A DNA stretch of 14,111 bases from positions 1 to 14,111 of the forward strand of contig SKSA01000227.1 of assembly GCA_007118195.1 (NCBI GenBank), written 5' to 3'. This DNA is from Anaerobacillus sp. (GTDB taxonomy: Bacteria > Bacillota > Bacilli > Bacillales > Anaerobacillaceae). Below, piece by piece: positions 2,362 through 13,835 of the stretch (positions within the stretch are counted from its first letter, which is position 1; every line of letters starts with the position of its first letter). The notes under the pieces are model-generated. The model was not told the DNA's origin. It did no database searches and saw nothing but the letters and a program-made list of their open reading frames with translations. Both the position numbers and the translations under genes were made by a program.

Positions 2362-4230
2362 ATGGTTGAAGCGATTTTAAAAATTTTTATAAGTGAACAG
2401 CAAGCGCAATCGATTTTATCGAATTCGTTAATTGAATTTATTTTTATGGTGTTATTTGTTTCATTTGCGATCGCAATTATCATTCATTTTACTTTGTATA
2501 GTAGATTGAGAAGAATACGGAACTTCCTTAGTACGAATAATTCGTTAGACATTGAACCGTTAAATCGGTTTCAAGGGGAGTTTGAACATAAAAATAAGCA
2601 AGAGTCGTTGAAGGTTGAAACGTTTGTTCAAAAGAAGTTCTCAGGCTGGCGAATGTTTAACGTACCTGTTGTTAGTCTCATTAAAATGATTCAAATGACG
2701 GTCTCCGTTTTTATATTAGTCGGTGTTTTAGGAACATTTATTGGTCTTGCGATGTCACTGGGGAGTATTGATGCCACAGGGGATCAGCTCGTAGAAAACG
2801 TGGCGCTCGTACTTGCTGGTATTGATGTGGCGTTCTACACGAGTATTGCCGGTATGGGTTTGTCACTTATCATGACAGTGGTTACTAGAGTGGCCAATAC
2901 AGAATATATGTTAACGGACATTATGTTAAAAACTGAGTCTTATTTAGAAGAAAATGAACCAGATGCGCTTGAGCGTCTTATCGATGTATCTGAAACGATC
3001 AATTCTTCCATAGTTCAGCTTCGGGAAACAAACGAAGAATCGTTACAAAGTATTGTCCAATCCTTTGATGGTTTTCAAGAATATACCGTTGGTTTACAGC
3101 AATCTGCGAAGGATTTAGCGAAGTTTAATGAGGGACTGTCGCAAAATCTACAAGATTTCACCGTGATTTTTGATGGAATCAAAGAATTAACTGAGGGCTT
3201 CGATAAAGGAGTAACGAAGTTAAATAAAAACTTTGACCAATTATTCAATTATTTTTACAAAATGGATCAAAGGAATGAAAAAATGACGAGTGCCTTTACG
3301 GAAACGTATAAAAAAGTGGCGGAACTAACAACATCCCAGACAGAAACGTTGAATCATTTTCAAAATTCAGTTGTTGATTTAAAGGACTTTTTCTCTTCGG
3401 TTGTCGGTCGGCAGGAAGCGATTCAAGGAGCATTTGAGAGAACGAATGCCCAAAGTGATCATCTCGTAAAATTAATGCAACAAAACAATCAACAGTTTAA
3501 AGGGATTTTTGGGAACGATTTGAGCGGGAAACTATCGGGAATTAATACTAACTTAAAAGAGCTGAAACATGACTTTGATAAGCTAGGCAATTCCGTTGTC
3601 CGTTTACCAGAGGCATTGGATATGATTAACATCGCTCAAGTGGAATATAAAAACCTCCTCAAGGAACGCCTGGCTGATTTAAAGCAATTTAATCAAGACT
3701 TCAACAACCATTTAAAAGCACATCATACGGAATCTCAAGCGTTTGAAAAACATATAAATGAAGCAAGTCGTTCTTATGAACAAGTCGGAATAAAAAACCA
3801 GCAATTGCTAAACGAAATCAACCGTACGATTTCGCAAATGACAGAAACGTTTAATCATAGAGAAAAAGGAATCGAGTCGAGCGTCGCTATTTTAAAAGAC
3901 ACCCTTTCTAGATATGTTGCAAATTTAGATGGTACTCTTGGTGAAAAATTAGACAAAGTGAGTAGGAACCTTGGCGATTATGTTGTTGATATGAATGACT
4001 CTATTAAAAAAGAATTTAAGCAAATCGGTGAATTAACCGAAGATAATCAACAAAGAAGTGCACGTGTAATGCAACAAACGCTTAATGAGTTAGGTCGTGA
4101 ATTTCAAAACTTAAATCGACAGCTTCATTCCATCACCCAAGAGGTAGCGAGACAAAGTCATATTCAAAGTCAAATTCAAAGCCAAAACCAAAATCGAAGC
4201 CGGCAGGTAAGGATTGGAAGCCATGATTAA
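2362..4230 (+). CDS. zorA: ZorA-like MotA/TolQ/ExbB-family channel subunit with long coiled-coil tail
   Basis: This is the stator-type subunit of a proton- or sodium-driven 5:2 inner-membrane motor. In the Zorya anti-phage system ZorA forms a pentamer around two ZorB and projects a long intracellular tail. Visible here are TM1 (about 22-46), TM2 with the family motif VGVLGTFIGL (120-129), and TM3 with AFYTSIAGMGLSL (157-169). A tail of more than 400 residues follows, rich in E, K, Q, L and N, with heptad-like, phage-tape-measure-like character. It ends in a Q/N/S/R-rich segment with short QSQ repeats (about 598-615). The length, 622 residues, fits ZorA and far exceeds flagellar MotA (about 260-290). 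GGGGG at 2349-2353 is the ribosome binding site. The gene overlaps zorB by 8 bp, so the two are translationally coupled. No flagellar genes are nearby. Alternative: a related 5:2 motor with another function. Confidence 0.75.
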   Translation: MVEAILKIFISEQQAQSILSNSLIEFIFMVLFVSFAIAIIIHFTLYSRLRRIRNFLSTNNSLDIEPLNRFQGEFEHKNKQESLKVETFVQKKFSGWRMFNVPVVSLIKMIQMTVSVFILVGVLGTFIGLAMSLGSIDATGDQLVENVALVLAGIDVAFYTSIAGMGLSLIMTVVTRVANTEYMLTDIMLKTESYLEENEPDALERLIDVSETINSSIVQLRETNEESLQSIVQSFDGFQEYTVGLQQSAKDLAKFNEGLSQNLQDFTVIFDGIKELTEGFDKGVTKLNKNFDQLFNYFYKMDQRNEKMTSAFTETYKKVAELTTSQTETLNHFQNSVVDLKDFFSSVVGRQEAIQGAFERTNAQSDHLVKLMQQNNQQFKGIFGNDLSGKLSGINTNLKELKHDFDKLGNSVVRLPEALDMINIAQVEYKNLLKERLADLKQFNQDFNNHLKAHHTESQAFEKHINEASRSYEQVGIKNQQLLNEINRTISQMTETFNHREKGIESSVAILKDTLSRYVANLDGTLGEKLDKVSRNLGDYVVDMNDSIKKEFKQIGELTEDNQQRSARVMQQTLNELGREFQNLNRQLHSITQEVARQSHIQSQIQSQNQNRSRQVRIGSHD

Positions 4231-4921
4231 TAAATATAAAAGGTTATTTAAAGGTGAGCAGGAGGAAAGTTATTTTTGGCCGTCATTTACCGATTTATTG
4301 ACGGCGATCTTGCTTTGTTTTATCCTCATTTTTATTATCATGATGGTCATAAAATCATTTCAAATTGAAGAGATGAAACGTACGATTGATCAAATTATGG
4401 GGGTTCGAGTTGATTTAATCAATGACTTGAATGAAGAATTTAGCGACTCGACTCTGGGGATTGAGATTGATGAGAAAACGGGTGCGATGATCTTTAACAC
4501 CGATATTTTGTTTGAGTTTGATGCGGCGGTCTTAAAGCCAGAGGCGTTTGAGTTTTTAGATGAGTTTGTTCCGGCCTATTTAGATGTGTTATTAGAAAGT
4601 GGTTATGAAGACTATATTTCCGAAATCATCATCGAAGGTCATGCCGATCGAACTGGTAGTTATTTGTACAACTTAGAGCTTTCTCAGGCAAGGGCTTTTA
4701 GTGTCGCAGAGTACGTACTTAGTGAAGATTTCCCCTACCAAAACATTCAGGAACATCTGAAAGAAAAATTAACGGTCAACGGAAGATCTTATACGGATGG
4801 ACGCACCGATGCAGAGGGGAACTATAGCCATCAGGATTCTCGTCGCGTAGAATTTAAATTCCGCTTAAAAGATGAAGAGATTTTAGAGGCAACACGTGAG
4901 TTGCTAGGTGGGAAAAATTAA
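4223..4921 (+). CDS. zorB: ZorB-like MotB-family protein with OmpA peptidoglycan-binding domain
   Basis: This is the partner of the upstream channel protein. One N-terminal TM helix (about 25-43) follows the motif FWPSFTDLLT, whose Asp24 matches the ion-carrying aspartate of MotB/ZorB. A short linker leads to an OmpA-like domain (about 90-215) with EGHADRTG (138-145), LSQARA (153-158) and a C-terminal DSRRVEFKF (205-213), the usual ligand-binding elements for cell-wall peptidoglycan. At 232 residues it matches ZorB. ATG 4223 is preferred over TTG 4214 because AAGGA (4209-4213) is well spaced for the ATG. The ATG lies 8 bp inside the end of zorA. A terminator follows directly, so this is the last gene of the operon. 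Family and pairing are firm; assignment to Zorya rather than another 5:2 motor is likely but not proved. Confidence 0.78.
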   Translation: MINKYKRLFKGEQEESYFWPSFTDLLTAILLCFILIFIIMMVIKSFQIEEMKRTIDQIMGVRVDLINDLNEEFSDSTLGIEIDEKTGAMIFNTDILFEFDAAVLKPEAFEFLDEFVPAYLDVLLESGYEDYISEIIIEGHADRTGSYLYNLELSQARAFSVAEYVLSEDFPYQNIQEHLKEKLTVNGRSYTDGRTDAEGNYSHQDSRRVEFKFRLKDEEILEATRELLGGKN

Positions 4922-5078: not shown

Positions 5079-5118
5079 AAAAACCTTACTACAAGAATAC
5101 ACGTAGTGAGATTTTTTT
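5079..5118 (+). terminator. Terminator-like hairpin upstream of the first aminotransferase
   Basis: The arms 5079-5092 and 5103-5116 pair over 14 positions with one mismatch and one G-U, around a 10-nt loop, and lead into seven T (5112-5118). The A-rich left arm makes it potentially bidirectional. It lies about 110 bp after the zorB terminator and upstream of the likely aminotransferase promoter. It may be a second barrier or may end a short transcript starting in 4973-5078. That stretch has no gene; it shows GTTTCA three times (5012, 5025, 5035). Confidence 0.6.
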
Positions 5119-5137
5119 GGATTATTCAGAAAAAAAC

Positions 5138-5166
5138 TTTAGTAAGAAAGAGGAAATAAATATAAT
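5138..5166 (+). promoter_or_regulatory. Probable sigma-A promoter of the first aminotransferase
   Basis: A perfect TATAAT (5161-5166) lies 17 bp after a weak TTTAGT (5138-5143). Transcription would begin near 5173, about 50 nt before the GTG start at 5225. This also argues against using the upstream in-frame TTG at 5117. Confidence 0.45.
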
Positions 5167-5224
5167 ACAACGAATAGAAATTAAGCAATGGCTTTTTAGA
5201 ATAAAAGCGAAGGGGGAATTTCAA

Positions 5225-6571
5225 GTGACAAAGTTCGATCATATCAAAAATATTGATGAGAAAAGTATTTGGCATTCTATGAAGCCTTATAATCCCGAGG
5301 CAACAATGGTCATCACAAAAGGCGAAGGTGCCTGGGTTACTGATATCGATGGAAAAAAATATTTAGACGCGATGTCAGGCTTGTGGTGTGTTAATGTTGG
5401 TTACGGAAGAGCAGAATTAGCTAAAGCTGCTTATGAACAGTTAAAGGAACTAGCCTACTATCCTTTAACTCAAAGTCATTTAGCAGCTATTAAATTAGGT
5501 GAGAAATTAAATGAAATGCTTGGTGACGATTATGTCTTTTACTTTTCAAATAGTGGTTCTGAAGCAAATGAAACCGCTTTTAAAATTGTTCGACAGTATC
5601 ATCAACAACGCGGAGATCACCAACGCTCTAAATTCATATCAAGATATCGGGGATATCATGGAAATTCATTTGGAACACTTGCAGCCACAGGGCAAGCGCA
5701 ACGAAAATATAAGTATGAACCGCTAGCTACAGGATTTATTCACGTAACACCACCGGATTTATACCGCTCGAATGAATGGAATGATACTCCAGCTTTAGAA
5801 ATTGAAACCGTAAAAGAAATCGATCGTGTCATGACATGGGAACTAAGCGAAACGGTTGCTTCTGTAATCATGGAGCCAATTATTACAGGTGGGGGAATTC
5901 TCATGCCACCAGATAATTATATGAAAGGTGTTAAGGCGGTTTGTGAAAAACATGGTGCATTACTAATTGCAGATGAAGTCATTTGTGGCTTCGGTCGTAC
6001 TGGTGAGCCTTTTGGCTTTATGAACTATGGTGTAAAACCTGATATTATTACGATGGCAAAAGGAATTACGAGTGCCTATTTACCTTTAGCGGCAACGGCC
6101 GTTAAAAGAGAAATTTTTGAGGCTTTTAAAGGGGAAGAAGAGTACGATTACTTCCGTCATGTAAATACATTCGGTGGGTCACCAGCCTCGTGTGCTGTCG
6201 CATTAAAAAACATTGAAATCATGGAACTAGAGAATTTATTTGAGCGCTCAAAAACAGCAGGGGAAAAGCTACAAAATGAATTAAAGGCCGCTTTACTAGA
6301 TCATCCATTTGTGGGTGATATCCGTGGGAAAGGACTTTTAATTGGTATTGAGCTTGTTGCAGACAAAGTTACGAAAGAACCTATTGATGTAAAAATCGTT
6401 AATGAGATAATGTTAAAATGCAAAAATAAAGGGCTTATTATCGGTAAAAACGGTGCAACTGTCGCTGGGTTTAATAATGTTATTTCGTTAGCGCCACCAT
6501 TAAGTAGTACGGATGAAGATTTACAATTTATTAAAACGACGCTAATCGAAGTTTTTAACGAAATAAATTAA
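5225..6571 (+). CDS. Class III pyridoxal-phosphate omega-aminotransferase (omega-amino acid/taurine--pyruvate type)
   Basis: This PLP enzyme of the class III aminotransferase family moves an omega-amino group to a keto acid, probably pyruvate. In its 448 residues one sees SNSGSEANE (phosphate binding), RYRGYHG, MEPI..GGG, the cofactor aspartate in ADEV (Asp250), the Schiff-base lysine in MAKGITSAY (Lys279), and a TFGGSP segment, all in family order. The N-terminal layout (IWHSMKPY, then DAMSGLWCVNVGYGR) resembles beta-alanine/taurine--pyruvate transaminases more than ornithine or GABA enzymes. GTG 5225 is chosen because GGGGGAA lies just upstream and the family N-terminus begins there; a longer in-frame reading from TTG 5117 adds 36 non-family residues. 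Together with the second aminotransferase it points to use of several omega-amino acids. The exact substrate cannot be read from sequence. Confidence 0.85.
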   Translation: MTKFDHIKNIDEKSIWHSMKPYNPEATMVITKGEGAWVTDIDGKKYLDAMSGLWCVNVGYGRAELAKAAYEQLKELAYYPLTQSHLAAIKLGEKLNEMLGDDYVFYFSNSGSEANETAFKIVRQYHQQRGDHQRSKFISRYRGYHGNSFGTLAATGQAQRKYKYEPLATGFIHVTPPDLYRSNEWNDTPALEIETVKEIDRVMTWELSETVASVIMEPIITGGGILMPPDNYMKGVKAVCEKHGALLIADEVICGFGRTGEPFGFMNYGVKPDIITMAKGITSAYLPLAATAVKREIFEAFKGEEEYDYFRHVNTFGGSPASCAVALKNIEIMELENLFERSKTAGEKLQNELKAALLDHPFVGDIRGKGLLIGIELVADKVTKEPIDVKIVNEIMLKCKNKGLIIGKNGATVAGFNNVISLAPPLSSTDEDLQFIKTTLIEVFNEIN

Positions 6572-7195: not shown

Positions 7196-7224
7196 TTGAC
7201 AACTAGATGACATTATACTAAAAT
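7196..7224 (+). promoter_or_regulatory. Sigma-A promoter of the gabT-like gene
   Basis: A consensus TTGACA (7196-7201) lies 17 bp ahead of TAAAAT (7219-7224). Transcription would start near 7231, leaving a leader of about 225 nt before the ATG at 7455. That leader carries the attenuator annotated next. Confidence 0.65.
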
Positions 7225-7234
7225 CAAATTAAAT

Positions 7235-7396
7235 AAATCGTTTCTAGAAAGACTTCCCTCTTTCATGATCAGCGATTTTCTAATTTTCAAAACTATATAT
7301 GTTAACTGAGAAATCTATCAGACTTCAAAAAATGAAGCTACAAAGTAGATTAAAGCCAGTTATGTCATAATTATTTATGATGTAATTGGCTTTTTT
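7235..7396 (+). promoter_or_regulatory. Candidate riboswitch/attenuator leader (copy 1), upstream of the gabT-like gene
   Basis: The 5' domain has outer stem AAATCG/CGATTT (7235-7240/7273-7278), internal-loop strand TTTCTA, hairpin GAAAGA/TCTTTC (7247-7252/7259-7264) and a returning strand containing GATC (7267-7270). The 3' domain has AACTG (7304-7308) pairing with CAGTT (7357-7361) around a nested stem AATCTA/TAGATT (7312-7317/7346-7351) and inner stem CTTC/GAAG (7323-7326/7334-7337). CAGTT is also the base of the terminator, so the two folds exclude each other. The permease leader at 12148-12331 repeats both domains. No T-box or known riboswitch consensus was recognised. Confidence 0.6.
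7353..7396 (+). terminator. Intrinsic terminator inside the gabT-like leader
   Basis: The arms 7353-7370 and 7375-7392 form an 18-pair stem with three G-U pairs and a 4-nt loop, running into six T (7391-7396). It ends 58 bp before the start codon. It is the OFF half of the attenuator. Confidence 0.85.
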
Positions 7397-7454: not shown

Positions 7455-8789
7455 ATGAACATTCAAAACAAAGAATTACAGGATGTAGAAAAGAGCACTT
7501 CAGCGTCTTTGCATGAACGCCGGATGAAAGCGGTTCCTAGAGGTCCGTATAATATCACTCAACATTATGTTGAGACGGCTAAGGGAGCAATAATTGAAGA
7601 TGTTGATGGAAATCGTTTAATTGATTTTGCTGGTGGAATTGGTATGCAAAATGTTGGGCACTGTCACCCAAAAGTTGCTAAAGCTATTACCGAACAAGTA
7701 AACAAAGCAATACATACTTGTTTTCATGTAGCACCTTATGAGAGTTATATTGAATTAGCGGAGCGACTCAATGAAATAACCCCTGGTGTCATGGAAAAGA
7801 AAACATTATTTTTAAATAGTGGTGCCGAGGCAGTTGAAAATGCAGTCAAAATAGCCAGGAAGTATACTGGCAAACCTGGAATTATCTCATTTGAACGAGG
7901 CTATCACGGTCGAACATTGTTAACGATGTCATTGACGAGTAAAGTGAAACCTTATAAGCACGGGTTTGGACCTTTTGCAAATTCAACTTATAAAATACCA
8001 TATCCATATTATTACAGAGCCCCTGAAGGAATGAGTCCTGATGATCTTGATAATTATTTACTAAATCAAATCGAAAATTTCTTCATTGCAGATGTTGCTT
8101 CAGATGAAATAGCTGCTATTATTATGGAACCTATTCAAGGTGAAGGAGGGTTTGTTGTTCCTTCCAAAAAATTTGTTCAAGGGATCGCAAGAGTTTGTGA
8201 AAAGAACAATATTTTATTTATAGCCGATGAGATCCAAACCGGCTTTGGCAGAACAGGAAAACTCTTTGCAATGGATCACTTTAATGTAACTCCTGATATT
8301 ATGACAATGTCCAAATCTTTGGCTGCTGGTATGCCTTTAAGTGCGGTTACTGGAAGAGCTGAAATTATGGATGCACCAGATATAGCGCAGCTAGGGGGGA
8401 CATTTGGTGGTAGTCCAGTATCATGTGCGGCGAGTTTAGCCGTCTTGGATGTTATTGAAGAGGAGAATTTAGTTGAAAAGAGTAATAAAGTAGGGTCTAT
8501 ATTACAAAATAGATTAAATTTGATGAAAGAAAAATATTCAGTAGTTGGGGATGTTCGTGGTCTAGGCTCTATGTGTGCCATTGAGTTAGTAAAAGATCGG
8601 CATACGAAAGAACCGGCAAAAGAATTAGCTGGGAAAATTGTTAATTACTGTTCTGAACACGGTCTAATTGTTTTAAGCGCTGGAATGTTCGGAAATGTTC
8701 TACGCTTTCTTCCGCCACTAGTGATCAATGAGGATGAACTTCAACAAGGTTTAGATATTTTAGAAAAAGCAATAGATGCTTGTAAATAA
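7455..8789 (+). CDS. gabT: GabT-like 4-aminobutyrate / 5-aminovalerate aminotransferase
   Basis: This class III PLP aminotransferase of the GABA transaminase group converts GABA or 5-aminovalerate, with 2-oxoglutarate, to succinate or glutarate semialdehyde plus glutamate. Its 444 residues show the GabT-like VPRGPYNITQHYVETAKGA start, DFAGGIGMQNVGHCHP, LNSGAEAVENAVKIAR, FERGYHGRT, IMEPIQGEGG, the cofactor Asp258 in ADEIQTGFGRTG, Schiff-base Lys287 in MSKSLAAGMPL, and TFGGSPVSCAA. GGAGG (7444-7448) sits 6 nt before the ATG. Its own promoter and a 225-nt attenuated leader precede it, and the downstream CoA-transferase may be reached through a second attenuator. The neighbouring CoA-transferase and glutaryl-CoA-type dehydrogenase favour a five-carbon substrate, by inference. 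GABA is the alternative. Confidence 0.88.
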   Translation: MNIQNKELQDVEKSTSASLHERRMKAVPRGPYNITQHYVETAKGAIIEDVDGNRLIDFAGGIGMQNVGHCHPKVAKAITEQVNKAIHTCFHVAPYESYIELAERLNEITPGVMEKKTLFLNSGAEAVENAVKIARKYTGKPGIISFERGYHGRTLLTMSLTSKVKPYKHGFGPFANSTYKIPYPYYYRAPEGMSPDDLDNYLLNQIENFFIADVASDEIAAIIMEPIQGEGGFVVPSKKFVQGIARVCEKNNILFIADEIQTGFGRTGKLFAMDHFNVTPDIMTMSKSLAAGMPLSAVTGRAEIMDAPDIAQLGGTFGGSPVSCAASLAVLDVIEEENLVEKSNKVGSILQNRLNLMKEKYSVVGDVRGLGSMCAIELVKDRHTKEPAKELAGKIVNYCSEHGLIVLSAGMFGNVLRFLPPLVINEDELQQGLDILEKAIDACK

Positions 8790-8819: not shown

Positions 8820-8925
8820 AACTGCCAAAGTTTAAGCAATTCTATTCCAGGATTGTCTATTAAACTAATATGCCAGTTAAAACATTTTCCATAGTATTGG
8901 TCTATGTTTTTAACTGGCTATTTTA
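8820..8925 (+). promoter_or_regulatory. Related antiterminator/terminator switch (copy 3), between gabT and the CoA-transferase
   Basis: AACTG (8820-8824) can pair with CAGTT (8874-8878) around a perfect 7-bp stem (8829-8835/8860-8866) and an inner 6-pair hairpin (8837-8842/8850-8855). CAGTT is also the base of the following terminator. This is the layout of the 3' domain in the gabT and permease leaders. The 5' TCTAG...GATC domain is not seen here, and the gabT stop codon is only 30 bp upstream. It may tune readthrough from gabT into the next operon. Confidence 0.45.
8872..8925 (+). terminator. Terminator hairpin between gabT and the CoA-transferase
   Basis: GCCAGTTAAAACAT (8872-8885) pairs with 8904-8918 over 14 pairs with one bulged T and an 18-nt loop. 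The T-tract is weak (TATTTT from 8919), so termination may be partial. Confidence 0.6.
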
Positions 8926-8987
8926 ATTATAACCAATATTTAAGGTTAAATTTAATTAATATTTTTATATAAAAGGTGGTGATAGTT

Positions 8988-10175
8988 GTGACCGGTGCAT
9001 TACATGGCGTACGGGTTTTAGATCTAACAAGAGTATTAGCAGGTCCTTATTGTACAATGATTCTTGGTGATTTAGGAGCAGATGTAATTAAAGTTGAGGC
9101 TCCAGGAGGAAGTGATGATACTCGTGCTTGGGGACCACCTTATACTGGAGGTGAAAGCGCTTATTATTTATGTGCTAACCGAAATAAAAGAGCAATTACA
9201 TTAGATTTGAAATCAGAGCAAGGGCAAGCAATTTTAAAAAAATTAATTGTTCGATCAGATGTAATTATTGAAAATTTTAAACACGGAACAATGGAAAAGT
9301 GGGGCTTAGGTTACGAACAACTTAAAGAAATAAATCCGCAAATTGTGCATTGTTCGATTACAGGCTTTGGTCATAAGGGCTTGTATAAAGATTTAGCAGG
9401 CTATGATTTTATCATTCAAGCAATGAGTGGATTAATGAGTATCACAGGAAGTGAAGAATCTGGTCCAATGAAAGTAGGTGTTGCAATCTCAGATATATTT
9501 ACAGGTTTGTATGCTGCAATTGGAATTCAAGCGGCTTTAATAGAGAAAAATCAATCAGGGTTAGGTCAAAGTATTGATATATCCTTATTCGATTCTCAAA
9601 TTAGCGCCTTAGCAAATGTTGCAAGTAACTATCTTATCTCAAATGCAGTACCAAAAAGATTAGGAAATGAACATCCGAATATAGTTCCGTATCAACCGTT
9701 TCCAACTTTAGATGGTTTAATAGCGGTTGCTGTAGGGAATGATCGTCAATTTGGAAAATTTATGAATGTAATAGGGTTACCAAATTTAAGTGCAGATGAA
9801 AAGTATTCTACTAATCCTAGACGACTAGAGAATAGAAATGAATTAACAAAAATAATTTCAGATCAGCTAGAGCAGGAAGAAACGAATTACTGGGTAGAAA
9901 AATTACGGGATTGTGGAATTCCTGCTGGGCCAATCAATTCAATTGATGAAATGTTTGAAGATCCACATGTGGTTGAAAGAGAGATAGTTAAGGAGGTTAC
10001 TCATCCAACGGCAGGGAAAATAAAGCTTGTTGGTAGCCCACTTAACCTTTCACGAACACCTACTGAGATTCAAAGACATCCACCTTTAGCTGGAGAACAT
10101 ACTGAGGATGTATTGAAGGAACTAGGTTTATGTATAGATGAGTTAAATGAATTAAAAGATAAAAAAATTATTTAG
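8988..10175 (+). CDS. Family III (CaiB/BaiF) CoA-transferase, possibly for glutarate
   Basis: This enzyme moves CoA between a donor acyl-CoA and a carboxylic acid through an aspartyl-CoA thioester. In its 395 residues the family start GVRVLDLTRVLAGPYCTMILGDLGADVIKVE-type segment, NRNKRAITLDL, the catalytic aspartate in AGYDFIIQAMSG (Asp140) and the C-terminal CGIPAGPINSIDEMFEDPHV are all present. GTG 8988 is chosen because AAAGGTGGTGA lies just before it; in-frame GTGs at 8976 and 8979 fall inside that ribosome binding site. The stop codon overlaps the AGGAGG of the acyl-CoA dehydrogenase gene 11 bp downstream, so the two form an operon. Pairing with a glutaryl-CoA-type dehydrogenase suggests glutarate or another dicarboxylate as acceptor; this is inference, since the family covers many acids. 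Confidence 0.88.
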   Translation: MTGALHGVRVLDLTRVLAGPYCTMILGDLGADVIKVEAPGGSDDTRAWGPPYTGGESAYYLCANRNKRAITLDLKSEQGQAILKKLIVRSDVIIENFKHGTMEKWGLGYEQLKEINPQIVHCSITGFGHKGLYKDLAGYDFIIQAMSGLMSITGSEESGPMKVGVAISDIFTGLYAAIGIQAALIEKNQSGLGQSIDISLFDSQISALANVASNYLISNAVPKRLGNEHPNIVPYQPFPTLDGLIAVAVGNDRQFGKFMNVIGLPNLSADEKYSTNPRRLENRNELTKIISDQLEQEETNYWVEKLRDCGIPAGPINSIDEMFEDPHVVEREIVKEVTHPTAGKIKLVGSPLNLSRTPTEIQRHPPLAGEHTEDVLKELGLCIDELNELKDKKII

Positions 10176-11576: not shown

Positions 11577-11689
11577 CTCAACTATTTAAAAATAAAATTT
11601 TTAAACAGTGAGAAGGGATTTTTAATAAAATGTTGAATTAGTTGAATTAGATGTTAAACATAAAAAAATTCACATATGGAGGGAACAAC

Positions 11690-12010
11690 TTGGGAAATAA
11701 AACGATCTTTATTGCAGGACATGCAAGATTACCACAAGGAATGGCAGCTAAAAGTTTATTTGAAACATTAACTGTTACTGCTGAGGTAGATAAAAAATAT
11801 GGAGTAATTTTAGATGCTTCTTGTACTTTAGCCACTGAACATGGTCGTAATTTTATCGGTACACTTTTAAAGGGGTATAGTTTGAAAGATGGAATCGAAG
11901 AACCTATTAAATCGATTCAAAATCATTATCGTGGAAAAGCAACAAATGCAATTGTTGCTGGATTGAAAGATTTACATCTTCAGTTTATACAAATTAAACA
12001 AGGAGAATAA
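11690..12010 (+). CDS. DUF3870 domain protein
   Basis: This small 106-residue protein of unknown function matches DUF3870. Family-typical parts are the first strand TIFIAGHARLPQGMAAK, the middle ILDASCTLATEHGRNFI with a conserved-looking cysteine, and the end YRGKATNAIVAGLKDLHLQF. It has no signal peptide or membrane segment. TTG 11690 is preferred because GGAGGG (11678-11683) is ideally placed for it; an in-frame ATG at 11651 would add 13 residues but has no good ribosome binding site. It sits between a terminator and the permease promoter, so it seems to be its own transcription unit. Placement inside an omega-amino acid/CoA-thioester cluster suggests a supporting role there, but no function can be stated. 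Confidence 0.8.
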   Translation: MGNKTIFIAGHARLPQGMAAKSLFETLTVTAEVDKKYGVILDASCTLATEHGRNFIGTLLKGYSLKDGIEEPIKSIQNHYRGKATNAIVAGLKDLHLQFIQIKQGE

Positions 12011-12095: not shown

Positions 12096-12124
12096 TTGAC
12101 TTTGTAAGCGGATACATTTACAAT
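12096..12124 (+). promoter_or_regulatory. Sigma-A promoter of the amino acid permease
   Basis: TTGACT (12096-12101) and TACAAT (12119-12124) are separated by exactly 17 bp. The spacer is filled by a cre operator. Transcription would begin near 12131, giving a leader of about 268 nt with an attenuator. Confidence 0.7.
12102..12117 (+). promoter_or_regulatory. CcpA catabolite-responsive element (cre)
   Basis: TTGTAAGCGGATACAT matches every position of the Bacillus cre consensus WTGNAARCGNWWWCAN. It lies precisely between the -35 and -10 boxes of the permease promoter, a position where bound CcpA would block RNA polymerase. This predicts repression of permease, and perhaps aldehyde oxidoreductase, transcription when a preferred sugar is present. 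Confidence 0.8.
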
Positions 12125-12147: not shown

Positions 12148-12331
12148 GCACCTCTAGAAAGATATTCTCTTTTAAGATCCGTGCAAATTACATTCACATA
12201 TTTTCCCAACCTTATATATTTTACATTTCAACTGTTGAATCTACTCTATTCGGGTCCCCGATGTACATAGTAGGTCGAAGCCAGTTGCATCATTTTATGT
12301 TTATTAATGATGTAGCTGGCTTTTGTTTTTT
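12148..12331 (+). promoter_or_regulatory. Candidate riboswitch/attenuator leader (copy 2), upstream of the permease
   Basis: The 5' domain has outer stem GCAC/GTGC (12148-12151/12181-12184), strand CTCTA, hairpin AAAGA/TCTTT (12158-12162/12168-12172) and a returning strand with GATC (12176-12179). The 3' domain has AACTG (12230-12234) pairing with CAGTT (12282-12286) around ATCTAC/GTAGGT (12239-12244/12270-12275), an internal loop and TCGGG/CCCGA (12250-12254/12257-12261). The stems differ in sequence from copy 1 but pair in the same places, while the single-stranded motifs are kept. That is the pattern expected of a conserved RNA fold. CAGTT is shared with the terminator. Confidence 0.6.
12278..12331 (+). 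terminator. Intrinsic terminator inside the permease leader
   Basis: The arms 12278-12294 and 12306-12322 form a 17-pair stem with two G-U pairs and an 11-nt loop, followed by TTTTGTTTTTT. It ends 68 bp before the permease start codon and is the OFF half of the leader switch. Confidence 0.85.
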
Positions 12332-12398: not shown

Positions 12399-13835
12399 AT
12401 GGGGATTATTAAGACGGAAAACAAATTAAAGAAGGTGTTGTCTAGGTTTGATGTGCTCTTTTTGTCCTTTGGTGCGATGATCGGCTGGGGATGGGTAGTT
12501 CTATCAGGTATTTGGATTACTGAAGCAGGTACTTTAGGGGCGATGTTGGCGTTTGTCATTGGGGGTATTTTAGTTATTTTTGTTGGGCTTACTTATTCAG
12601 AATTAGCTTCAGCGATGCCTAAGGTTGGTGGAGAGCTCGTCTATGTACTGAGGGCCCTCGGTAAGAATTTAGGTTTCGTTGCTGCTTGGGCTGTTACATT
12701 GGGGTATGTATCAGTTGTTGCTTTCCAGGCTACGGCCTTACCGACGGTTATTGAATTTTTCTTTCCTAATTATCGTGTCGGTTACATGTGGACCATACAA
12801 GGTTGGGACGTTCATTTATCGTGGGTGCTTGTCGGTGTTTTAGGGGCATTGTTCGTTATGTTTGTCAATTATATCGGAATTAAAATAGCCGCAATTGTTC
12901 AAATGATTTTTACACTTATGATTGCAGTAATGGGTATATTGTTAATTAGCGGAGCTTCTGTAACGGGGAGCATGGCAAACGCTGAACCTCTATTCCTTGG
13001 TGGAATGGCTGGAATTATGACCGTTATTGTTATGACACCGTTCATGTTCGTCGGCTTTGACGTCATTCCTCAAGCGGCTGAAGAGATGAACATTAAGCGA
13101 AAATCAATTGGTAAAATATTAATTTTCTCTGTATTTTTAGCGGTGTTTTGGTACATTGCGATTATTTTCGGAGTAGGTGTTTCTCTTGATAAGCCTTCTC
13201 TTGTAGATGCGTCATTACCAACAGCAGCAGCTATGGGGGCAATTTTCGGATCCGAATTCTTTGCAAAGCTACTAGTTGCAGGGGGAATCGCAGGAATTTT
13301 AACAAGTTGGAATGCCTTTATCATCGGTGGAAGCCGAGTTCTTTATGCGATGGCAGAAGCTCGGATGTTACCAGCTTGGTTCGGAAAACTACATCCAAAA
13401 TACAAAACTCCAGCAAACGCAATTTTATTTATTGGCTGTTTATCCGTACTTAGCCCGCTTTTTGGTCGTCCAATGTTAGTATGGTTAGTTGACGCAGGAG
13501 GATTTGCAGTTGTTATCGCATATTTCTTAGTTGCATGGGCATTCCTTAGACTTCGAAAAGATGAGCCTAACATGAGTCGTCCATTTAGAGCAGGAAAAAG
13601 CAATGTCGTTGGCTGGTTCGCTATAGTTATGAGTTTAGGTTTCATCGTCTTGTATCTGCCTGGTATGCCAGCGGCACTTTCTTGGCCAGCAGAATGGTTC
13701 ATCTTTGCAGGGTGGTCGTTATTAGGGGTATTTTTCTGGGCTAGGATGAGAAAAACGTTAACAGATGAACATGTTGATGAATATTTAAAAGATGTTGTTG
13801 AATTAAATGATGAGGATGAAGAGAAAGTAAGTTAA
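12399..13835 (+). CDS. APC-superfamily amino acid permease
   Basis: This secondary transporter has 478 residues and about 12 hydrophobic helices, of the amino acid/polyamine/organocation superfamily. The TM1 helix break FGAMIGWGWVVLSG, the TM2-3 loop YSELASAMPKVGGELVYV, and the TM6-7 region FVGFDVIPQAAEEM are typical. A charged, acidic C-terminus ends the protein. Substrate cannot be read from sequence; its place in the cluster, and a leader shared with the gabT-like gene, suggest import of the same omega-amino acid. The start is ATG 12399: the frame is closed by TAA at 12381, and the first internal alternative (GTG 12435) would cut into the N-terminus. The start is odd because the ribosome binding site abuts it. 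Transcription is predicted to be under CcpA and an attenuator. Confidence 0.88.
   Translation: MGIIKTENKLKKVLSRFDVLFLSFGAMIGWGWVVLSGIWITEAGTLGAMLAFVIGGILVIFVGLTYSELASAMPKVGGELVYVLRALGKNLGFVAAWAVTLGYVSVVAFQATALPTVIEFFFPNYRVGYMWTIQGWDVHLSWVLVGVLGALFVMFVNYIGIKIAAIVQMIFTLMIAVMGILLISGASVTGSMANAEPLFLGGMAGIMTVIVMTPFMFVGFDVIPQAAEEMNIKRKSIGKILIFSVFLAVFWYIAIIFGVGVSLDKPSLVDASLPTAAAMGAIFGSEFFAKLLVAGGIAGILTSWNAFIIGGSRVLYAMAEARMLPAWFGKLHPKYKTPANAILFIGCLSVLSPLFGRPMLVWLVDAGGFAVVIAYFLVAWAFLRLRKDEPNMSRPFRAGKSNVVGWFAIVMSLGFIVLYLPGMPAALSWPAEWFIFAGWSLLGVFFWARMRKTLTDEHVDEYLKDVVELNDEDEEKVS

What the first reader, a model, noticed from the sequence alone, without database searches (positions are those of the whole stretch)
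7235..7396. Undescribed two-domain leader RNA shared by the gabT-like gene and the permease
The leaders at 7235-7396 and 12148-12331 share a 5' fold: outer stem, TCTA strand, AAAGA/TCTTT hairpin, and a returning strand with GATC. The outer stems have different sequences (AAATCG/CGATTT and GCAC/GTGC) but pair at the same place, while TCTAG and GATC in the internal loop are kept. That looks like an aptamer with a conserved binding core. Both leaders end in an antiterminator/terminator switch. The two genes plausibly act on the same compound, so an omega-amino acid or a derived metabolite is a candidate ligand. I could not match it to a T-box, ykkC, glycine, lysine, purine or TPP consensus.
Basis: partly seen in the sequence, partly recalled or inferred. 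Interest (0 to 1): 0.8.

Follow-up and report, generated by a model that had tools for sequence, protein, structure and literature searches.

The report
Leader RNA of glutarate breakdown genes
Bacillus-like bacteria carry a previously uncatalogued folded RNA switch in front of many of their genes for breaking down glutarate and its precursor 5-aminovalerate; it probably senses such a compound and decides whether transcription continues.

Summary
The leaders at 7235-7396 and 12148-12331 belong to a widespread RNA family with strong compensatory base changes (63 leaders, 91.8% of cells paired, changes on both sides in 27 of 30 pairs, 0/500 shuffles as good). No Rfam family matches the leaders. 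The claimed fixed TCTAG/GATC core is wrong: CTAG occurs in 17 and GATC in 16 of 63. What is kept is the antiterminator: AACUG/CAGUU, a covarying stem-loop inside it, and GCCAGU shared with the terminator. Downstream genes are mostly glaH, the glutarate-type CoA-transferase, gabT and transporters. The leader occurs in genomes with glaH but no such CoA-transferase and in genomes with the reverse, pointing to glutarate, its semialdehyde or 5-aminovalerate. Best reading: an ON-switch attenuator, probably a glutarate-pathway riboswitch. Binding is unproven. A protein route is a live rival: DUF3870 is in 49 of 49 leader-bearing genomes.

The parts
7196..7224 (+). sigma-A-type promoter of leader 1 (TTGACA-17-TAAAAT)
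   Evidence: 11 of 12 consensus matches; consensus match only
7235..7278 (+). leader 1 domain 1: P1 7235-7242/7271-7278, P2 7247-7252/7259-7264, asymmetric internal loop, apical loop 7253-7258
   Evidence: P1 and P2 covary in 63 leaders
7304..7361 (+). leader 1 domain 2 (antiterminator): P3 AACTG 7304-7308/CAGTT 7357-7361, P4 7312-7318/7345-7351, P5 7323-7326/7334-7337
7352..7396 (+). leader 1 intrinsic terminator: 5' arm 7352-7370 overlaps the P3 3' strand, 3' arm 7375-7393
7455..8789 (+). gabT-type aminotransferase gene after leader 1
   Evidence: TIGR00700 625 bits vs cut-off 506.65
   Evidence: (37.1 bits, E 1.1e-7, best hit in the window with a model holding no window sequence); with the two-domain model R2 it scores only 22.7 bits, E 0.12
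8976..10175 (+). CaiB-type CoA-transferase gene after leader 3; best NCBIfam model succinate--glutarate CoA-transferase
   Evidence: NF052585 467.8 bits, below its cut-off of 750; PF02515
10187..11401 (+). acyl-CoA dehydrogenase; best NCBIfam models acryloyl-CoA reductase and glutaryl-CoA dehydrogenase, both under cut-off
11651..12010 (+). DUF3870 protein; family present in all 49 leader-bearing genomes of the order sample; predicted fold most like IscU, weakly
12096..12124 (+). sigma-A-type promoter of leader 2 (TTGACT-17-TACAAT)
   Evidence: consensus match only
12148..12184 (+). leader 2 domain 1: P1 12148-12151/12181-12184, P2 12157-12162/12168-12173
12230..12286 (+). leader 2 domain 2 (antiterminator): P3 12230-12234/12282-12286, P4 12238-12244/12270-12276, P5 between them
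12278..12326 (+). leader 2 terminator (arms 12278-12294 and 12306-12322) and T run
   Evidence: not listed by the simple scan
12399..13835 (+). APC-family amino acid permease gene after leader 2

Best explanation
These are copies of one cis-acting transcription-attenuation leader that controls 5-aminovalerate/glutarate catabolism in Bacilli. RNA is made from a promoter just upstream (for leader 3 probably by read-through from gabT). The nascent RNA forms domain 1 where present, then domain 2: P4/P5 closed by the 5-bp helix P3 (AACUG/CAGUU). The 3' strand of P3 is also part of the 5' arm of the terminator. With nothing bound the terminator wins and transcription stops. When a pathway metabolite is present, most likely glutarate (next 5-aminovalerate), it stabilises P3 on P4, the terminator cannot form and the genes are expressed. 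Shown by computation: the RNA family, its covariation, the mutually exclusive helices, the gene association. Inferred: the ON direction, direct metabolite binding, ligand identity, and that domain 1 docks on or tunes domain 2.
For: Covariation: in 63 leaders 375 cells changed on both sides against 110 in shuffles and 36-84 in slid controls; RNAalifold predicts 26 pairs, 23 with compensatory changes. Domain 2 alone in 20 leaders of other species: 55 double changes against 18 shuffled and 9-16 slid. A terminator with the complement of CCAG and a U run in 62 of 63. Folding: RNA up to CAGUU folds as P3-P4-P5 in all three window leaders; full-length RNA folds with the terminator and without P3, and forcing P3 costs 15.6, 13.5 and 8.6 kcal/mol. 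Specificity: the domain 2 model finds 47 matches at E up to 0.05 in 80 CoA-transferase loci (851 kb), all on the gene strand and ahead of the gene, 45 of them by 41-667 nt and two by 3.2 kb (17 of the 47 helped build the model). In 299 genomes drawn from the phylum only the window's own and one same-order genome match R2. Genes: of 95 leaders the first gene is GlaH in 33, CaiB in 31, GabT in 7; 83 have a core pathway gene in the next four ORFs. One representative each of GlaH and L-2-hydroxyglutarate oxidase exceeds its curated cut-off. In the class search 24 of 25 newly fetched loci hold a relative of a core gene. Ligand logic: 29 of 49 glaH genomes lack a close CoA-transferase relative and all 29 carry a leader; 11 of 12 leader genomes without glaH have that enzyme, so L-2-hydroxyglutarate and glutaryl-CoA are unlikely common signals. 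In E. coli the csiD operon is derepressed by glutarate through CsiR (PMC6265302, abstract and passages).
Against: No binding, 3'-end or expression data were available. Domain 2 also stands before HyuA/HyuB-type genes with a different 5' hairpin, and in leaders with no clear domain 1 (by eye), so one ligand for all members is not certain. 12 of 95 leaders have no core gene in the next four ORFs. Some pairs of the structure are weak: columns 4-55, 12-46 and 120-183 are unpaired in 26, 27 and 20 of 63. For domain 2 alone, the number of pairs with double changes is reached by 20 of 500 shuffles. The CoA-transferase and dehydrogenase assignments in the window are below curated cut-offs. Five of six same-genus genomes have no match. 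DUF3870's co-occurrence with the leader would also fit a protein-dependent mechanism.
Confidence: 0.55

Rival explanations
1. Protein-dependent antitermination: a trans-acting RNA-binding protein, with DUF3870 the best candidate, binds the near-invariant ACUG/GCCAGU region or domain 1 when the metabolite is present and stabilises the antiterminator, as HutP does for hut (HutP recalled).
For: DUF3870 is in 49 of 49 leader-bearing and 49 of 49 glaH genomes of the order sample, against 118 of 348 leader-negative genomes. It lies within 10 kb of a leader in at least 31 of 49 (the list of DUF3870 places was truncated) and directly ahead of one on the same strand in G000, G049, G254, G361 and G384. 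P3 and GCCAGU are near-invariant while other stems vary. E. coli has GlaH (control) while DUF3870 is in none of the 14 control genomes.
Confidence: 0.25
2. The leader is a general attenuator (sensing pausing, translation of a leader peptide or RNA chaperones) with no specific metabolite.
For: Thermodynamically the terminator dominates. Leader peptides were not searched for.
Against: Tied to one pathway and to two unrelated enzyme routes; a near-invariant loop C (62 of 63) and covarying inner stems are not needed for a simple terminator.
Confidence: 0.1
3. Tandem sensing: domain 2 binds one signal (perhaps 5-aminovalerate) and domain 1 another (perhaps glutarate), giving a two-input gate.
For: Domain 2-only leader 3 stands beside two-domain leaders 1 and 2 in one cluster; HyuA/HyuB-type leaders have domain 2 and a different 5' hairpin (by eye).
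Against: Nothing here separates this from one bipartite pocket; domain 2-only members were judged by eye from promoter position.
Confidence: 0.2

Closest known systems
gabT RNA motif (Rfam RF01738, Pseudomonas; row of a table in PMC2864571, seen)
   Same: Named for a gabT gene
   Different: Found in Pseudomonas; its model is in Rfam, which gave no match to the leaders searched
CsiR/glutarate control of csiD-lhgO-gabDTP in E. coli (PMC6265302, abstract and passages)
   Same: Same pathway and enzyme types, induction by glutarate
   Different: DNA-binding repressor there; RNA attenuator here
ON-type transcription-terminating riboswitches in general (recalled)
   Same: Switch helix whose 3' strand is shared with the terminator, ahead of catabolic and transport genes
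   Different: Matches no Rfam class; ligand unknown; antiterminator domain also occurs without domain 1
T-box and lysine riboswitches (features recalled)
   Same: Leaders with antiterminator/terminator exchange in Bacillales
   Different: No Rfam match to the leaders searched
HutP-type protein antitermination (recalled)
   Same: Catabolic operon, possible small partner protein
   Different: No relation of DUF3870 to HutP was seen; its model is closest to IscU

Membership tests
Any of 4227 Rfam 15 families | score at or above the family's gathering cut-off | tested here: not met
   window: 0 matches; 12 leader-bearing loci: only a tRNA and Bacillaceae-1, both outside the leaders; relaxed searches of 2 window loci and 6 divergent loci gave only U12 and MIR7504 far below cut-off
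gabT RNA motif RF01738 | match to the Rfam model | tested here: not met
T-box leader | match to the Rfam T-box models | tested here: not met
Lysine riboswitch | match to the Rfam model | tested here: not met
Structured cis-regulatory RNA | compensatory base changes above shuffled and slid controls | tested here: met
Transcription attenuator | mutually exclusive antiterminator and intrinsic terminator ahead of the gene | tested here: met
   (sequence and folding only)
Riboswitch | direct, specific binding of a metabolite that changes gene expression | not testable with these tools
   needs probing and in vitro transcription
HutP-type antitermination | ligand-dependent RNA-binding protein required | not testable with these tools
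   DUF3870 co-occurrence only
IscU/NifU-like fold (DUF3870) | structural match well above background | tested here: inconclusive

The most novel reading that the evidence does not exclude
A new riboswitch class for glutarate (or another C5 metabolite of lysine breakdown), spread over many genera of Bacilli, with a modular antiterminator aptamer used alone or with a second upstream domain, three copies gating successive steps of one gene cluster in this window, and DUF3870 as an associated partner.
Probability: 0.42. Interest if true: 0.87.

Novelty: new variant of a known kind. Interest (0 to 1): 0.77.

Why it matters
Glutarate and 5-aminovalerate are intermediates of lysine breakdown and nylon-type monomers; the glutarate sensor I could read about is a DNA-binding protein (PMC6265302). 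A widespread RNA sensor would explain how many Bacilli regulate this pathway, give a compact genetically encoded biosensor, and offer a handle on the small DUF3870 proteins of this pathway.

Tried and rejected
Rfam at gathering and relaxed thresholds: nothing on the leaders. Exact loop pattern in the family: only the window's own two copies among 7 genomes, because the loop is not conserved. L-2-hydroxyglutarate and glutaryl-CoA as common ligands: disfavoured by genomes with only one of the two routes. A fixed TCTAG/GATC core: rejected. Profile search of DUF3870 against PDB: no match under E 0.16; HutP-like folds are not among the rows, which excludes nothing. Plasmid search: no match.

Literature, all in one open-access library that lacks most subscription papers: search listings only. 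Word searches of the main texts of PMC11109978, PMC8632094 and PMC6429828 found no glutarate, hydroxyglutarate, gabT, csiD or aminobutyrate (supplements not read). Passages of PMC6265302, PMC2864571 and PMC4387736 were read. PMC4387736 assigns the C-terminal, beta-rich half of a Bacteroides protein (PDB 3kog) to PF12986 and likens it to pore-forming toxins; this does not fit my model of the small window protein (three strands, three helices), and 3kog is not among the PDB hits. I could not resolve this.

Rows dropped: of 98 matches, one duplicate (L010, same as L166) and two that I judged chance (L127, L129) were left out of the 95-leader tally; the two genomes behind them (G147, G350) were taken from the 51 to give 49. 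My ORF caller missed glaH at L145, which one search places there; the tally counts that leader under LhgO. A5 (63 rows) used 54 of the 86 sources and E up to 1e-5. A7 left out all window sequences and 13 of the 33 rows printed.

Full report
Setting. The window is one whole contig (G000 C38) of a partial genome, 2.7 Mb and 62% complete. It holds a class III aminotransferase (5117-6571), a GNAT protein, gabT (7455-8789), a CaiB-type CoA-transferase whose best NCBIfam model is succinate--glutarate CoA-transferase (below cut-off), an acyl-CoA dehydrogenase with a glutaryl-CoA dehydrogenase model second (below cut-off), a DUF3870 protein and an APC permease. Read together (inference), this is a 5-aminovalerate to glutarate to glutaryl-CoA route.

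The observation. Both reported leaders fold as stated and much better than shuffles. Both follow sigma-A-like promoter matches, a kind of match that is also common by chance. In each, the segment up to CAGTT folds as P3 (AACUG/CAGUU) enclosing P4 and P5, while the full leader folds with the terminator and without P3; forcing P3 costs 15.6 and 13.5 kcal/mol. So in leaders 1 and 2 only the 5-bp P3 competes with the terminator, and P4/P5 can persist in both states.

Relatives. A scan for the CoA-transferase gave 80 loci. Hand-made patterns found the leader ahead of that gene in several genera. A covariance model from the two window copies and six relatives (R1) matched 51 of 397 genomes of the order at E up to 0.1, two of which I judge chance; of six same-genus genomes one matched. 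Matches were collected and 63 strong ones aligned.

Covariation. On these 63 leaders 91.8% of cells form standard pairs, 27 of 30 pairs have a change on both sides, and double changes number 375 against a shuffled mean of 110 and 36-84 in slid controls. The alignment was fitted to the model's structure, which leans towards it, and three outer pairs are unpaired in 20-27 of 63. RNAalifold predicted its own structure on the same rows: 26 pairs, 23 with compensatory changes. P3 is almost invariant (C-G 63, U-A 62, G-C 63 of 63), as are alignment columns 188 (G, 62 of 63) and 189 (C, 63 of 63) and a C in the P2 loop (62 of 63). CTAG is present in 17 and GATC in 16 of 63.

A third leader. A model of domain 2 alone (R3) was built from 20 leaders of other species, none from the window. 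Its stems covary: 55 double changes against 18 shuffled, though the count of pairs with a double change is reached by 20 of 500 shuffles. In the window it finds three places, best 8820-8880 (37.1 bits, E 1.1e-7), then the two known ones. In the own genome the next hit has E 1.5. The sequence shows AACTG...GCCAGTT...AACTGGC. The two-domain model R2 scores it only 22.7 bits, E 0.12. It sits between gabT and the CoA-transferase gene without a good promoter match ahead, so it probably gates read-through (inference). Of 80 CoA-transferase loci 47 have an R3 hit at E up to 0.05, all on the gene strand and ahead of the gene: 45 by 41-667 nt, two (L027, L035) by 3.2 kb. Seventeen of the 47 helped build R3.

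Breadth and controls. R2, built from the 63, matched 28 of 398 genomes of the class at E up to 0.01. Among 299 genomes drawn from the phylum it matched only the window's own genome and one same-order genome. At this sensitivity the family looks confined to Bacilli. These large searches use stricter filters that lose weak matches.

Genes. For 95 leaders the first gene is GlaH 33, CaiB 31, GabT 7, HyuA 4, APC permease 3, GntR 3, acyl-CoA dehydrogenase 2, ABC transporter 2, one each of TRAP transporter, GabD-like, Rieske and LhgO, and six without a recognised gene; 83 of 95 have a core pathway gene among the next four ORFs. The one counted under LhgO (L145) really starts with glaH. Cluster names for GlaH, LhgO, TRAP and TAXI rest on NCBIfam hits for one representative each over its cut-off; GabD-like had no hit over a cut-off. 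HyuA/B, Rieske, BCCT, ABC and GntR are my reading of sequences. In the class search 24 of 25 newly fetched loci hold a relative of a core gene by tblastn; acyl-CoA dehydrogenases and CaiB-type transferases are large families, so single hits of these are weaker evidence.

Which signal. GlaH exceeds its cut-off in 49 of 397 order genomes. R1 finds a leader in 37; in the other 12, R2 finds one 74-309 nt ahead of glaH in 11 (one weak, 23.2 bits, E 0.097) and one in the CoA-transferase/DUF3870 region of the twelfth. Of the 49, 29 have no CoA-transferase relative at E 1e-100, and all 29 have a leader. Of 12 leader genomes without glaH, 11 have the CoA-transferase; one of these is the window's own incomplete genome. 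The two routes meet only upstream, at glutarate, glutarate semialdehyde and 5-aminovalerate. In E. coli the csiD operon is derepressed by glutarate through CsiR (PMC6265302, passages). I therefore rank glutarate first.

Modularity. HyuA/HyuB-type leaders (L114, L118, L121, L122) keep domain 2 but have another 5' hairpin; some leaders (L123, L124, L125, L024) seem to start directly with domain 2, judged by eye from promoter position. This suggests that domain 2 is the common switch and domain 1 adds specificity or strength (inference).

Verdict. A real RNA leader family of the glutarate/5-aminovalerate genes, not in Rfam 15 and not found in the papers searched. Confidence that it is a structured transcription attenuator of these genes is about 0.95; that the RNA itself senses the metabolite about 0.6; that the ligand is glutarate about 0.4.

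Noticed in passing
   Followed up: yes
11651-12010: DUF3870 family is present in 49 of 49 leader-bearing genomes and in some stands directly ahead of a leader; predicted fold weakly IscU-like.
   Followed up: partly
L114, L118, L121, L122 (about 430-540 of the oriented loci): Same antiterminator with a different 5' hairpin ahead of HyuA/HyuB-type genes, possibly lactam hydrolysis to 5-aminovalerate (guess).
   Followed up: no
L133 9413-9557, minus strand: Leader ahead of a Rieske-type oxygenase and a BCCT-type transporter, beside three other leaders in the same 19 kb; could be a betaine-type route into glutarate semialdehyde (guess).
   Followed up: no
L217 5600-5676; also L218, L225: Short related-looking terminators (GCTGC...GCAGAT...CCAGC) near or right after divergent DUF3870-like reading frames.
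   Followed up: no
L146, L117 (G084, G045): Good leader matches with no recognised pathway gene within 400 nt; the next ORF called, a dynamin-like GTPase by my reading, is 480-494 nt away.
   Followed up: no
2362-4921: MotA/ExbB-like and OmpA-domain protein pair upstream of the cluster, unrelated to the finding.
   Followed up: no
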